Shown piece by piece: positions 9,923 to 59,679 of a DNA stretch of 64,000 nt. Under the pieces are notes generated by a model. It had not been told where the DNA came from. It did no database searches and worked only from the letters and a program-made list of their open reading frames with translations. Numbering within the stretch: the stretch's first letter is position 1; each line of letters opens with the position of its first letter. Origin of the DNA: Cellulomonas marina (lineage in GTDB: Bacteria > Actinomycetota > Actinomycetes > Actinomycetales > Cellulomonadaceae); contig NZ_FOKA01000003.1 in NCBI RefSeq assembly GCF_900111925.1, positions 62,001 through 126,000 of the forward strand, read 5' to 3'. The position numbers were made by a program, and so were the translations under genes.

Positions 9923-9946
9923 GTGTCAGAGCAGACACGCTGACAC
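9923..9946. repeat. Inverted repeat in the ABC ATPase leader
   Basis: GTGTCAG (9923-9929) and CTGACAC (9940-9946) are perfect 7-bp arms 10 nt apart, upstream of the ribosome-binding site of the gene starting at 10000. They could be an operator or an RNA hairpin. Confidence 0.45.
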
Positions 9947-9999
9947 TCTTCACGACGGATCGTCCGGCACGTACCTGCCGGTGGAGGGATGTACCAGTC

Positions 10000-56641: not shown

Positions 56642-56700
56642 CCCTGCTCCCCGTCCTCGCACCGCTGCCGGACCCGCCGCCCGTCGCCGGCGCCCCGGCG

Positions 56701-56706
56701 ACCGTA
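56701..56706 (-). promoter_or_regulatory. -10 box of the NlpC/P60 gene
   Basis: TACGGT on the minus strand predicts a start near 56694 and a ~53-nt leader. Confidence 0.45.
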
Positions 56707-56734
56707 CCTGCTCGTCGCCCCAGGGGGAACACCA

Positions 56735-56761
56735 GTCACACGAGTCCCAGAAGTCACACCG
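56735..56761. promoter_or_regulatory. Three 9-bp direct repeats, MtrA-like
   Basis: GTCACACGA, GTCCCAGAA and GTCACACCG are contiguous on the plus strand, at about -41 to -67 of the predicted NlpC/P60 start. M. tuberculosis MtrA binds loosely conserved 9-bp direct repeats of the type GTCACAgcg upstream of cell-wall hydrolase genes such as ripA. The match is by motif and target class only. Confidence 0.5.
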
Positions 56762-56893
56762 TTGTGCTTCCCATCGGCGGGCGGGTGCCCCGTCGTGAGC
56801 GTTCGGGACGCGACGGGCATCCCCGCGCCATCTCACGCAGCGGACAGGCGTCCGGATGGCGGACCCGCTCTCGTCGTCCGAGGGCGCCGCCCC

Positions 56894-56899
56894 TAGCCT
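56894..56899 (+). promoter_or_regulatory. Leaderless -10 box of the metY leader
   Basis: TAGCCT on the plus strand, exactly 6 nt before the ATG of the MTCRMCR frame at 56906, so transcription would begin on that ATG. Confidence 0.65.
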
Positions 56900-56905
56900 C
56901 GCCGC

Positions 56906-56929
56906 ATGACCTGTCGAATGTGCCGCTGA
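56906..56929 (+). CDS. Leader peptide MTCRMCR upstream of metY
   Basis: Complete seven-codon frame ATG ACC TGT CGA ATG TGC CGC TGA, encoding two Cys and two Met in seven residues. It begins 6 nt after a TAGCCT box, so it would be translated from the first base of the mRNA. Short Cys-rich leaderless frames act as cysteine-responsive attenuators upstream of sulfur operons in mycobacteria. Here metY-metX begin 172 nt downstream. The TGC codon lies in GTGCCG (56920-56925), which is complementary to CGGCAC at 56943, 56970 and 57060. Too short for statistical support alone; composition, promoter and context make it convincing. Confidence 0.7.
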   Translation: MTCRMCR

Positions 56930-57101
56930 CCCTGCGCACGTTCGGCACGCCCGGACCCCGCCACCCCGCCGGCACGGCCGCCGAGAGGGACCGGGGCCCG
57001 ACGGCCCCACCGTGCGCCCCACCCGAGCCTGACCGGGTGACCGCGGCGCGAGCAGCCCTCGGCACCCGTCGACCCCCGAGCGACGTACGAGGAGACACCC
57101 C
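56930..57101 (+). promoter_or_regulatory. metY leader with competing hairpins
   Basis: The 172-nt leader contains CGGCAC three times (56943-56948, 56970-56975, 57060-57065), each able to pair with GTGCCG inside the leader frame. The middle copy overlaps GCACGG (56972-56977), which can instead pair with CCGTGC (57010-57015), enclosing the hairpin GGGGCC-CGAC-GGCCCC (56993-57008). These pairings are mutually exclusive. The metY ribosome-binding site GAGGAG is at 57089-57094. No known riboswitch fold was recognised. Confidence 0.45.
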
Positions 57102-58418
57102 ATGAGCGACAGCTGGAGCTTCGAGACCCGTCAGATCCACGCCGGCCAGGTGCCGGACGCCGCCACCGGCGCCCGCGCCCTGCCGATCTACCAGACGACG
57201 TCCTTCGTCTTCGACAGCGCGCAGCAGGCGGCGGACCGGTTCGCGCTGAAGGAGCTCGGCCCGATCTACACGCGCATCACCAACCCGACGCAGGCGGTCG
57301 TCGAGGACCGCATCGCCTCGCTCGAGGGCGGCGTCGGCGGCCTGCTCGTCGCCTCCGGCCAGGCGGCGGAGACGCTCGCGATCCTCACGATCGCCGAGGC
57401 GGGCGACCACCTCGTCGCCTCCTCCTCGCTGTACGGCGGGACGTACAACCTGCTCAAGCACTCCCTGCCGAAGCTCGGCATCACGACGACGTTCGTCGAA
57501 GACCCGCACGACCCGCAGCAGTGGCGCGACGCCGTCCGCCCGAACACGAAGCTGTTCTTCGCCGAGACGATCCCCAACCCGAAGTCCGACGTGCTCGACA
57601 TCGAGACGGTCGCGGGGATCGCGCACGCGGCCGGGGTCCCGCTCGTCGTGGACAACACCGTCGCGACGCCGTACCTCGTCAACCCGCTCGCGTGGGGCGC
57701 CGACGTCGTCGTGCACTCGGCGACGAAGTACCTCGGCGGGCACGGCTCGGCGATCGGCGGCGTGCTCGTCGACGGCGGGACCTTCGACTTCGCGCAGGAC
57801 CCCGAGAAGTTCCCCGGGTTCAACCAGCCGGACCCCTCGTACAACGGGCTCGTGTTCGCCCGTGACCTCGGCGTCGGCGGGGCCTTCGGCGTCAACCTCT
57901 CCTTCATCCTCAAGGCCCGCGTGCAGGGGCTGCGCGACTACGGCGCCGCCATCAGCCCGTTCAACGCGTTCCTCATCGCGCAGGGCGTCGAGACGCTGTC
58001 GCTGCGCGTGGAGCGCCACGTCGCGAACGCGCAGAAGGTAGCGGAGTGGCTCGAGGCGCGCGACGAGGTGCGGCACGTCTTCTACTCGGGCCTCGAGTCC
58101 TCCCCCTGGCACGCCAACCAGCTCAAGTACGCCCCCCGCGGCGCCGGTGCGGTGCTGGCCTTCGAGCTCGACGGCGGCGCGGAGGCCGGGAAGGCCTTCG
58201 TCTCGGCGCTCGAGCTGCACTCGAACGTCGCGAACATCGGCGACGTGCGCTCGCTCGTCATCCACCCCGCGTCGACGACGCACTCCCAGCTCACGCCGGA
58301 GCAGCAGGCGCTGTCGGGCGTGACGCCCGGCCTCGTGCGCCTGGCCGTCGGCCTGGAGGGGATCGACGACATCCTGGCCGACCTCGACGCCGGCTTCCGC
58401 GCGGCCAAGGGCGCCTGA
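57102..58418 (+). CDS. metY: O-acetylhomoserine aminocarboxypropyltransferase/sulfhydrylase
   Basis: PLP enzyme of the Cys/Met-metabolism family joining O-acetylhomoserine and sulfide to homocysteine. 438 residues. Start ETRQIHAGQ; YTRITNPTQAVVEDRIASLEGG (shortened) is the family segment; PLP lysine in SATKYLGGHG. The ATG at 57102 has GAGGAG 7 nt upstream. metX follows 4 nt after the stop, giving a two-gene direct-sulfhydrylation operon for methionine. Likely controlled by the sulfur-rich leader peptide upstream. Confidence 0.95.
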   Translation: MSDSWSFETRQIHAGQVPDAATGARALPIYQTTSFVFDSAQQAADRFALKELGPIYTRITNPTQAVVEDRIASLEGGVGGLLVASGQAAETLAILTIAEAGDHLVASSSLYGGTYNLLKHSLPKLGITTTFVEDPHDPQQWRDAVRPNTKLFFAETIPNPKSDVLDIETVAGIAHAAGVPLVVDNTVATPYLVNPLAWGADVVVHSATKYLGGHGSAIGGVLVDGGTFDFAQDPEKFPGFNQPDPSYNGLVFARDLGVGGAFGVNLSFILKARVQGLRDYGAAISPFNAFLIAQGVETLSLRVERHVANAQKVAEWLEARDEVRHVFYSGLESSPWHANQLKYAPRGAGAVLAFELDGGAEAGKAFVSALELHSNVANIGDVRSLVIHPASTTHSQLTPEQQALSGVTPGLVRLAVGLEGIDDILADLDAGFRAAKGA

Positions 58419-58422
58419 GCCC

Positions 58423-59679
58423 GTGCCCGATCCGGTGCCTGATCTGGTGCAGCACCAGCACCCCGACGTCGCCGCCGCCCTGCCCCGGGCGGCGGCGCCC
58501 GCGGCGAGCCGGACGCCCCTGCCCGAGCGCCCGCCCGTGCCCGCGAGCGCGGCGTGGCGGGACGGCGACCCGGTGGGCCGGCGGCGGTTCGCGGACCTCG
58601 GGCCCTTCCGGCTCGAGGCGGGCGGGCGGCTGCCGGCCGTGCGCCTGGCCTACGAGACGTGGGGGACGCTGAACGCGGCGCGCGACAACGCGGTGCTGGT
58701 GCTGCACGCCCTGACCGGGGACTCCCACGTGACGGGCCCCGCCGGCCCCGGGCACCCGACGCCGGGCTGGTGGCAGTCGATGGTAGGTCCCGGCGCGCCC
58801 ATCGACACCGACCGGTACTTCGTCGTCGCCCCCAACGCCCTGGGCGGGTGCCAGGGGTCGACGGGTCCCGCGTCCACGGCGCCCGACGGCCGGCCGTGGG
58901 GCGGCCGGTTCCCGCAGCTGACGGTCCGCGACCAGGTCGAGGCCGAGGTCCGGCTCGCCGACCTGCTGGGGATCGACGCGTGGCACCTCGTCGTCGGGGC
59001 GTCGATGGGCGGGCTGCGGGTGCTCGAGTGGGCCGTGACGGCCCCGGCGCGGGTGCGGGCGCTGGCAGCGATCGCGACGAGCGCGCAGACCTCCGGCGAC
59101 CAGATCGCGTCGTTCCACACCCAGCTCGCGGCCATCCGCGCCGACCCGCGCTTCCGCGGCGGGGACTACTACGACGCGCCCGACGGCGAGGGCCCGCACG
59201 TGGGGCTCGGCATCGCCCGGCAGATCGCGCACCAGACCTACCGCAGCGCGCGGGAGCTCGACGAGCGCTTCGGCCGCATCCCCCAGGGCGCCGAGGAGCC
59301 GCTGGCCGGCGGCCGCTACGCCGTGCAGTCCTACCTGGACCACCACGGCGACAAGCTGGCCCGCCGGTTCGACGCCAACACCTACGTGCGCTTCACCGAG
59401 ACGATGGTGACGCACGACCTCGGCCGCGACCGCGGTGGCGTCGAGGCGGCGCTGGCGTCGGTCACCGCGCGGGCCCTCGTCGTCGCCGTCGACACCGACC
59501 GGCTCTTCCTGCCGGCGCAGTCCGAGCGGATCGCGGCGGGCATCCCCGGGGCCGGGCCGGTCCGGACCATCCGCTCGGAGTTCGGGCACGACGGCTTCCT
59601 CATCGAGGAGGACCAGGTCGGCGCGATGGTCCGGGAGTTCCTGCTCGAGACGGCCACGGACGACGCCATCACCGGCTGA
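58423..59679 (+). CDS. metX: Homoserine O-acetyltransferase MetX
   Basis: Alpha/beta-hydrolase-fold enzyme activating homoserine with acetyl-CoA, substrate supplier of MetY. 418 residues. Nucleophile Ser in GASMGGL, catalytic Asp in VDTDRLF and His in GHDGFL, with NALGGCQGSTGP near the oxyanion hole. An N-terminal ~45-residue Pro/Ala-rich extension precedes the core. The GTG at 58423 lies 4 nt after metY. The end overlaps the convergent glycerate kinase gene by 11 nt, with no terminator in between. Confidence 0.95.
   Translation: MPDPVPDLVQHQHPDVAAALPRAAAPAASRTPLPERPPVPASAAWRDGDPVGRRRFADLGPFRLEAGGRLPAVRLAYETWGTLNAARDNAVLVLHALTGDSHVTGPAGPGHPTPGWWQSMVGPGAPIDTDRYFVVAPNALGGCQGSTGPASTAPDGRPWGGRFPQLTVRDQVEAEVRLADLLGIDAWHLVVGASMGGLRVLEWAVTAPARVRALAAIATSAQTSGDQIASFHTQLAAIRADPRFRGGDYYDAPDGEGPHVGLGIARQIAHQTYRSARELDERFGRIPQGAEEPLAGGRYAVQSYLDHHGDKLARRFDANTYVRFTETMVTHDLGRDRGGVEAALASVTARALVVAVDTDRLFLPAQSERIAAGIPGAGPVRTIRSEFGHDGFLIEEDQVGAMVREFLLETATDDAITG

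What the first reader, a model, noticed from the sequence alone, without database searches (positions are those of the whole stretch)
56894..57101. Leaderless MTCRMCR leader peptide and switchable leader RNA before metY-metX
Seen: TAGCCT exactly 6 nt before an ATG; a seven-codon frame with 2 Cys and 2 Met; GTGCCG covering its TGC codon; three complementary CGGCAC sites downstream; an overlapping alternative pairing GCACGG/CCGTGC around a GC hairpin; metY 172 nt on. Known: Cys-rich leaderless short frames control sulfur operons by attenuation in mycobacteria. Inference: ribosome stalling when charged tRNA-Cys (or Met) is scarce alters pairing and raises metY-metX expression. A peptide mixing Cys and Met could sense both end products.
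Basis: partly seen in the sequence, partly recalled or inferred. Interest (0 to 1): 0.82.

Follow-up and report, generated by a model that had tools for sequence, protein, structure and literature searches.

The report
Conserved leader peptide before methionine genes
A seven-amino-acid peptide encoded at the very start of the messenger for two methionine-making enzymes is kept almost unchanged across related bacteria and resembles a published Streptomyces leader peptide, so it is very probably a real regulatory switch, although how it switches is not yet shown.

Summary
The sequence is as described: TAGCCT, ATG six bases on, frame MTCRMCR*, metY 172 nt later, then metX. Conservation is strong: 27 of 27 same-genus leaders with upstream DNA (genus Cellulomonas by contig-length match; window included) carry a leaderless frame ending RMCR*. 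The first Cys is kept in only 12 of 27; Arg-Met-Cys is, with Arg always CGA (3 of 554 Arg codons in metY genes). The core recurs in longer leaderless peptides before a regulator gene in Microbacteriaceae (29 of 30 leaders), before metN-like genes in seven presumed Streptomyces genomes, matching the published metL peptide of S. lividans, and in short frames between SAM-IV riboswitches and metY. None of 20 metY leaders scanned has both SAM-IV and the leaderless frame.
Its statistical support is modest, and folding did not support occlusion of metY's ribosome site. Best reading: a metL-type leader peptide whose translation sets metY-metX output according to Cys/Met supply. Responsiveness and mechanism remain untested.

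The parts
56894..56899 (+). -10-like box TAGCCT; predicted transcript start at or near 56906
   Evidence: Sequence; TANNNT 6-7 nt before the uORF ATG in 27 of 27 same-genus leaders with upstream DNA, window included; 0.01 expected by chance for the combined pattern in 64 kb. The generic sigma-70 scan found nothing here. No start-site data.
56906..56929 (+). Leaderless uORF MTCRMCR*; conserved core CGA ATG TGC CGC TGA at 56915-56929
   Evidence: 27 of 27 same-genus leaders end RMCR*; L023 of another family ends RMRS*; lengths 24 or 27 nt only; core found before metY across the order
56912..56926 (+). 5' arm of hairpin P1, overlapping uORF codons Cys3 to Arg7
   Evidence: MFE of 56906-57036 pairs 56912-56926 with 56934-56947; the 31-nt core hairpin alone has z -4.71, the 131-nt stretch z -1.17; RNAalifold top helix in 70 leaders
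56934..56947 (+). 3' arm of P1 (GCGCACGTTCGGCA), just after the uORF stop; also the segment that could take part in the distal pairing
   Evidence: Most columns of GCGCACGTTC nearly invariant in 44 aligned leaders; 92.3% of P1 cells paired against at most 53.7% when slid; no covariation, because the arms hardly vary
57011..57017 (+). Distal CGTGCGC that could pair with GCGCACG (56934-56940) instead of P1
   Evidence: CGTG(C/T)GC in 24 of 27 same-genus leaders. Covariation is weak: 19 cells changed on both sides against 10.1 in shuffles, but slid controls reach 17
57090..57094 (+). AGGAG ribosome-binding site of metY
   Evidence: Sequence
57102..58418 (+). metY, O-acetylhomoserine/O-acetylserine sulfhydrylase
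   Evidence: Pfam Cys_Met_Meta_PP; NCBIfam NF005872 and TIGR01326 above cut-off
58423..59679 (+). metX, homoserine O-acetyltransferase, 4 nt after metY (start codon uncertain)
   Evidence: NCBIfam NF047917 and NF001209 above cut-off from residue about 50 on

Best explanation
It is a leaderless leader peptide of the metL type: transcription starts at the A of the uORF ATG, a ribosome translates seven codons, and the time it spends on CGA-AUG-UGY next to the stop codon decides the shape and fate of the metY-metX leader. With enough Cys (and Met) the ribosome finishes and leaves, hairpin P1 (uORF codons with GCGCACGTTCG) re-forms, and little metY-metX mRNA is made or read. When Cys-tRNA (or Met-tRNA) is short the ribosome sits on the 5' arm of P1, the 3' arm is freed, perhaps for CGTGCGC further down, and expression rises. 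Because no intrinsic terminator was found and the leader is C-rich, the likeliest output step is Rho-dependent termination or loss of coupling rather than simple occlusion of the metY ribosome site. Shown here by sequence comparison: the frame, its leaderless geometry, its conservation, the fixed CGA-ATG, conserved P1 arms in the metY group, and SAM-IV in its place in other families. Inferred: transcription start, translation, stalling, the sensed molecule, the direction of the effect and Rho.
For: 27 of 27 same-genus leaders with upstream DNA carry the leaderless frame, length changing only by whole codons; three more same-genus leaders fetched later (L187, L198, L199) do too. The core stands before metY in 87 distinct leaders, two of them with SAM-IV. 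Microbacteriaceae: 29 of 30 leaders of a regulator gene carry CGAATGT in a peptide ending (C)CRM(C/S)(R/A/S); 75 distinct peptides give pN 0.24 against pS 0.40; -35/-10-like boxes judged by eye. Seven presumed Streptomyces genomes have the same CGA-ATG-TGY in a peptide before a MetN-like gene, and S. lividans metL is reported as leaderless from RNA-seq (PMC8079986, passages). Of 20 metY leaders scanned across the order 8 have SAM-IV, 5 the leaderless frame, none both; in some families SAM-IV is followed by a ribosome site and a short frame with the CGA-ATG core, then metY, which suggests that translation of the frame is the controlled step. No intrinsic terminator found; leaders average 46% C, 30% G. 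CGA is 3 of 554 Arg codons in metY genes and 24 of 692 in the regulator genes.
Against: No transcript or ribosome data for any Cellulomonas; the sigma-70 scan found no promoter. 15 of 27 same-genus uORFs have a single Cys codon, a weak sensor. Equilibrium folding with ribosome masks gave little change at the metY ribosome site (mean unpaired 0.24 without, 0.27 with the Cys mask, 0.26 with the stop mask; by more than 0.05, 15 of 79 leaders opened and 5 closed with the Cys mask, 13 and 5 with the stop mask; window unchanged at 0.43). Pairing of the core with the 45 nt downstream exceeded shuffles at p<=0.05 in 17 of 78 leaderless metY leaders (window p 0.066), 2 of 59 regulator leaders, 0 of 8 SAM-IV and 0 of 3 Actinomyces-type leaders, so P1 is not part of every member. 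The distal pairing is hardly better than slid controls in doubly changed cells (19 against up to 17). 7 of 20 metY leaders across the order have neither SAM-IV nor the frame, two of them before more distant paralogs. L023 lacks the Cys; L185 keeps the core out of frame. 2.3% of window stretches on this strand match the leader's best C-over-G excess.
Confidence: 0.6

Rival explanations
1. Nascent-peptide arrest: the short peptide ending Arg-Met-Cys, read through the rare CGA codon, stalls the ribosome in response to a small molecule (for example SAM, Met or Cys) rather than to uncharged tRNA.
For: Arg(CGA)-Met is kept even where the next residue is not Cys (MTCRMPF, MTCRMRR; MNHHRMRR, read by eye); the N-terminal part of the long form is also under some amino-acid selection (pN 0.29, pS 0.40), which plain codon counting would not need; CGA is otherwise avoided.
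Against: Seven residues hardly reach into the exit tunnel (general knowledge); the residues before Arg-Met vary in the short form; no test of stalling.
Confidence: 0.2
2. The conserved bases are a non-coding element: an RNA structure or a DNA-binding site over the transcription start, with the reading frame incidental.
For: The bases of the CGA-ATG codons are fixed at silent positions; P1 arms are conserved; L185 keeps the core out of frame (read by eye).
Against: Length changes are whole codons in 27 of 27 same-genus leaders and mostly 3-nt in the regulator group (by eye); amino-acid selection in the long form; SAM-IV versions place a ribosome site and start codon before the core; no Rfam match at E<=5.
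Confidence: 0.12
3. The uORF is translated constitutively and only protects the transcript or feeds ribosomes downstream; it senses nothing.
For: Short leaderless frames are common in mycobacteria (PMC4633059, title and passages); single Cys codon in 15 of 27 same-genus uORFs.
Against: The same Arg-Met-Cys core before three kinds of gene, two of them methionine genes, and SAM-IV in its place or before it in other families point to sulfur control.
Confidence: 0.08

Closest known systems
metL leader peptide of Streptomyces lividans TK24, before metNIQ (PMC8079986; passages read)
   Same: Leaderless, before a methionine gene, ends ...CMCRRMCAF*; presumed Streptomyces relatives use TGT CGA ATG TGY; no clear intrinsic terminator in either.
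   Different: 29 aa against 7 aa; import operon against biosynthesis operon; SAM-IV exchange and codon invariance are not mentioned in the passages seen; the paper calls it methionine-dependent by prediction.
Polycysteine leaderless sORFs of mycobacteria (Canestrari 2020, doi 10.1111/mmi.14498; paper not held, seen only as summarised or cited in PMC9094748 and PMC9031893, passages)
   Same: Leaderless short frame with Cys codons that regulates the genes below; proposed cysteine-dependent elongation.
   Different: Those are described as having contiguous Cys codons; here Cys codons are single or separated, next to a fixed CGA-ATG, with a hairpin over the frame's end.
Riboswitch plus uORF leaders of M. 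tuberculosis: B12/ppe2 (PMC11260477, abstract and passages) and Mbox/pe20 (PMC12810186, abstract and Discussion)
   Same: A riboswitch controls a uORF; for ppe2 the uORF's translation is required for the gene below, as the SAM-IV plus short frame arrangement here suggests. Rho is considered in both; the pe20 paper reports Rho-dependent termination, the ppe2 passages seen argue mainly for reinitiation.
   Different: Other ligands and other peptides; the window's own leader has no riboswitch.
Cys-rich leader peptides predicted before cys operons in Actinobacteria (Seliverstov 2005, PMC1262725; abstract and passages)
   Same: Short Cys-containing leader frames without terminator hairpins; Rho suggested.
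   Different: That survey reported no conserved RNA regulatory structures before methionine operons.

Membership tests
metL-type leader peptide (S. lividans metL) | Leaderless start just after a -10 box | tested here: met
   Geometry only: 27 of 27 same-genus leaders; no start-site mapping
metL-type leader peptide (S. lividans metL) | C-terminal Arg(CGA)-Met-Cys close to the stop | tested here: met
   Window CGA ATG TGC CGC TGA; presumed Streptomyces TGT CGA ATG TGY GC
metL-type leader peptide (S. lividans metL) | Long N-terminal part (MT..SRTLATEA..) | tested here: not met
   Window peptide is 7 aa; the 33-aa Microbacteriaceae form resembles metL by eye; common descent was not tested
Polycysteine leaderless sORF attenuator (mycobacteria) | Contiguous cysteine codons | tested here: not met
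   C at positions 3 and 6 only; no Cys before RMCR in 15 of 27 same-genus leaders
Polycysteine leaderless sORF attenuator (mycobacteria) | Expression of the operon responds to cysteine | not testable with these tools
   No expression data
Classical (trp-type) transcription attenuator | Intrinsic terminator with U tract | tested here: not met
   0 found in 56700-57200
Classical (trp-type) transcription attenuator | Mutually exclusive pairings overlapping the leader frame | tested here: inconclusive
   P1 and the distal pairing share GCGCACG, but P1 shows no covariation, the distal pairing is weakly supported, and folding gave no consistent output change
SAM-IV or other Rfam riboswitch / T-box | Match to an Rfam model in the leader | tested here: not met
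   None over the gathering score in the window leader, none at E<=5 in 56700-57200

The most novel reading that the evidence does not exclude
CGA-AUG-UGY just before a stop codon is a portable stalling cassette of Actinobacteria: a rare Arg codon, Met and Cys positioned so that the last ribosome on a leaderless mini-frame reports sulfur amino-acid supply. It has been attached to methionine synthesis (metY-metX), methionine import (metNIQ) and a regulator gene, and evolution has exchanged leaderless initiation for a SAM-IV-gated start while keeping the frame as the common output step.
Probability: 0.35. Interest if true: 0.78.

Novelty: new variant of a known kind. Interest (0 to 1): 0.62.

Why it matters
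It gives methionine synthesis in part of a large order a plausible translation-based control standing where other families use the SAM-IV riboswitch, and it links scattered short frames before metY, metN and a regulator gene into one recognisable motif. The same core in a riboswitch context and in a leaderless context makes a clean comparison: what a uORF does when gated by initiation versus by elongation. It also offers a testable case of a fixed rare codon in a seven-codon frame.

Tried and rejected
Occlusion of the metY ribosome site: 79 leaders folded with and without a ribosome mask; small and mixed changes (15 opened, 5 closed with the Cys mask). Not adopted as the main output step; kinetic folding was not modelled.

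Hairpin P1 as the only reason for the silent-site conservation: rejected, because CGA-ATG is also kept in the regulator group, where a complement of CGAATG (G-U allowed) within 60 nt occurs in 1 of 27 leaders against 1.6 in shuffles, while 18 of 33 metY leaders have one against 1.6 (the 33 were chosen by me, partly pattern-found).

Core outside the order: CGAATGTGYMGCTGA in 394 genomes of the class matched in 24 genomes (2 control places); 14 of these lie in the order and the 10 outside it showed no short-frame end before a recognisable sulfur gene. CGNCGAATGTGYNNNNNNTGA matched in 22 of 394 genomes (3 control places); these hits were not examined. TGYCGAATGTGYGC in 48 chosen genomes gave 12 places in 11 genomes (2 control places); 4 were metL-like, 8 not.

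Function of the Microbacteriaceae regulator from its neighbours: ORF lists of three loci read by eye, nothing sulfur-related recognised; its only Pfam match is Trans_reg_C.

Rows left out: one search aligned 44 of the 46 stretches prepared (L023 and L090 dropped, so the two most deviant were not); one search left out 4 Actinomyces-type and 2 SAM-IV leaders and then near-duplicates (87 to 81 to 70); one search used 79 leaders, without L238 and L239 and those lacking a recognisable ribosome site or 45 nt of metY.

Literature: no paper found that reports this uORF before metY; searches (open-licence library only).

Full report
What is there. The window holds TAGCCT, six bases, then ATG ACC TGT CGA ATG TGC CGC TGA (56894-56929), and 172 nt on the metY start. 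metY matches the O-acetylhomoserine/O-acetylserine sulfhydrylase models and metX, four bases after metY, the homoserine O-acetyltransferase models. The combined pattern of -10 box, spacing, ATG and Cys codon is expected 0.01 times in the window by chance. There is no Rfam match in the leader; a generic scan found neither an intrinsic terminator nor a sigma-70 promoter in 56700-57200.

Conservation close by. metY was searched in 58 genomes (57 with a match); 30 loci were returned, two without upstream DNA (L004, L027) and one from another family (L023). In the other 27, all of the same genus and the window among them, a leaderless ATG frame follows TANNNT by 6-7 nt, 191-231 nt before metY, is 24 or 27 nt long and ends RMCR*. 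L023 has MTRRMRS*, 267 nt before metY. Three further same-genus leaders fetched later also carry an RMCR* frame (L187, L198, L199). The Arg codon is CGA in all 28, although CGA is 3 of 554 Arg codons in the metY genes of these loci.

Conservation further out. ATG-N6-Arg-ATG-TGY-Arg-TGA occurs in 55 of 297 genomes of the order (56 places) against 1 control place; at least two places look like chance. That scan fixes the core letters, so it cannot be used to measure their conservation. Among all loci then held, 87 distinct leaders have the core before metY, two of them with SAM-IV.

A second home. In Microbacteriaceae the core stands before a gene with a Trans_reg_C domain. To avoid the bias of the pattern, leaders were fetched by the regulator protein (79 of 80 genomes match; 30 loci taken). 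29 of the 30 carry CGAATGT upstream; in 28 of these the peptide has Arg-Met-Cys and in one (L279) Arg-Met-Ser; L265 has no such core. The frame is mostly 33-34 codons, consensus MTDNAR.LT..EA.GTAGMMMPGR.AVMCCRMC(R/A). Over 75 distinct peptides (pattern-found loci included) pN is 0.24 and pS 0.40; before the core 0.29 and 0.40, in it 0.07 and 0.39, the last figure being lowered by the pattern. Many have TTGAC-like and -10-like boxes with the latter ending about seven bases before the ATG, judged by eye; a strict TANNNT match was found in only 4 of 28 and a ribosome site in 1 of 28.

A published relative. In S. lividans a leaderless peptide metL, MSTTSDRTPATEATTTPGARCMCRRMCAF*, was reported before metNIQ from RNA-seq (PMC8079986, passages). 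Twenty presumed Streptomyces genomes were searched with one narrow pattern (3 hits) and 7 of the same twenty with another (4 hits, all in other genomes than the first 3): 7 of 20 have such a peptide with CGA ATG TGY, 218-241 nt before the start of a common protein. Three of these seven proteins were tested and have ABC_tran and NIL domains; the one scanned with NCBIfam has MetN as its best model, below that model's cut-off. The window's peptide therefore belongs with a known kind, in a much shorter form and before another operon. Common descent of the short and long forms was not tested.

SAM-IV in its place. Of 20 metY leaders fetched from 16 families of the order (three of the 20 same-genus), 8 have SAM-IV, 5 the leaderless frame, 7 neither, none both; two of the 7 lie before paralogs of 52% and 46% identity. 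Only these 20 and the window were scanned for SAM-IV. In 27 of 30 SAM-IV loci a frame of over 150 aa starts within 80 nt of the element. In the other 3, and in 3 of 19 more, a ribosome site and a short frame with CGA-ATG come first (MTCRMPF, MIQRMCP, MTCRMRR; MTCRMCR twice; MNCRMCC, read by eye), then metY; MNHHRMRR and MIERMCR are further cases read by eye. If SAM-IV works there as it does at directly coupled genes, then translation of the short frame must favour metY. This is inference. In these seven distinct peptides Cys follows Arg-Met in 4 and not in 3.

RNA structure. The strongest common helix in 70 leaders pairs CGAAUGUG.CGCU of the uORF with AGCG.CACGUUCG after its stop. In the window the hairpin spans 56912-56947; its 31-nt core folds at -15.6 kcal/mol, z -4.71, while the 131-nt stretch has z -1.17 and three relatives (65 nt each) 0.43, -1.20 and -2.43. 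In 44 aligned leaders 92.3% of P1 cells pair, against at most 53.7% when slid, but the arms hardly vary and give no covariation. Against shuffles of the 45 nt downstream, 17 of 78 leaderless metY leaders reach p<=0.05 (window 0.066), 2 of 59 regulator leaders, 0 of 8 SAM-IV and 0 of 3 Actinomyces-type leaders. GCGCACG of the hairpin could pair with a distal CGTG(C/T)GC, present in 24 of 27 same-genus leaders. With the hairpin next to it this shows 19 doubly changed cells against 10.1 in shuffles (2 of 500), but 14 to 17 in three slid versions; its covariation score is 0.127 against at most 0.064 slid. So the distal pairing is possible, not established. Folding with ribosome masks changed the metY ribosome site little and in both directions.

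Reading. The best-supported account is a metL-type leader peptide whose translation, slowed at CGA-AUG-UGY when Cys or Met is short, prevents the hairpin over the frame's end and raises metY-metX. Couplings of uORF and riboswitch are described for M. tuberculosis, with Rho-dependent termination at pe20 (PMC12810186, abstract and Discussion) and mainly reinitiation at ppe2 (PMC11260477, abstract and passages); cysteine-dependent leaderless frames are described for mycobacteria (Canestrari 2020, known here only through PMC9094748 and PMC9031893). An earlier survey found no conserved RNA structure before methionine operons in Actinobacteria (PMC1262725, passages). What is new here, as far as the searches named in Tried and rejected show, is the uORF before metY, the CGA-ATG-TGY core in three gene contexts, and SAM-IV standing in its place or before it.

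Noticed in passing
window 9938-9996 +: msiK RNA (RF01747), 64.1 bits, E 2e-13.
   Followed up: no
upstream of the -10 box in same-genus loci (L002-L030): Many relatives have a palindrome-like GTCTCA..TGAGAC..GTTTCA (by eye), possibly an operator; it is not evident in the window itself.
   Followed up: no
Loci L258-L287 (Microbacteriaceae): A conserved peptide of about 33 aa precedes a winged-helix regulator of unknown role found in 79 of 80 genomes of the family.
   Followed up: partly
L185 (G050, SAM-IV leader): The core is kept out of frame; the frame starting at GTG runs on and its TGA overlaps the metY start as ATGA (read by eye). Could be an assembly error or translational coupling.
   Followed up: no
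L032-L034, L123 (L123 is Actinomyces; the others unnamed): MNRRMCR* variant without a TANNNT box and with a different sequence after the stop; predicted folding does not use the P1 stem.
   Followed up: partly
own genome G000, outside the window: One SAM-IV riboswitch (E 7e-17) lies elsewhere in this genome (none in the window), so SAM-IV is absent at metY, not from the species.
   Followed up: no
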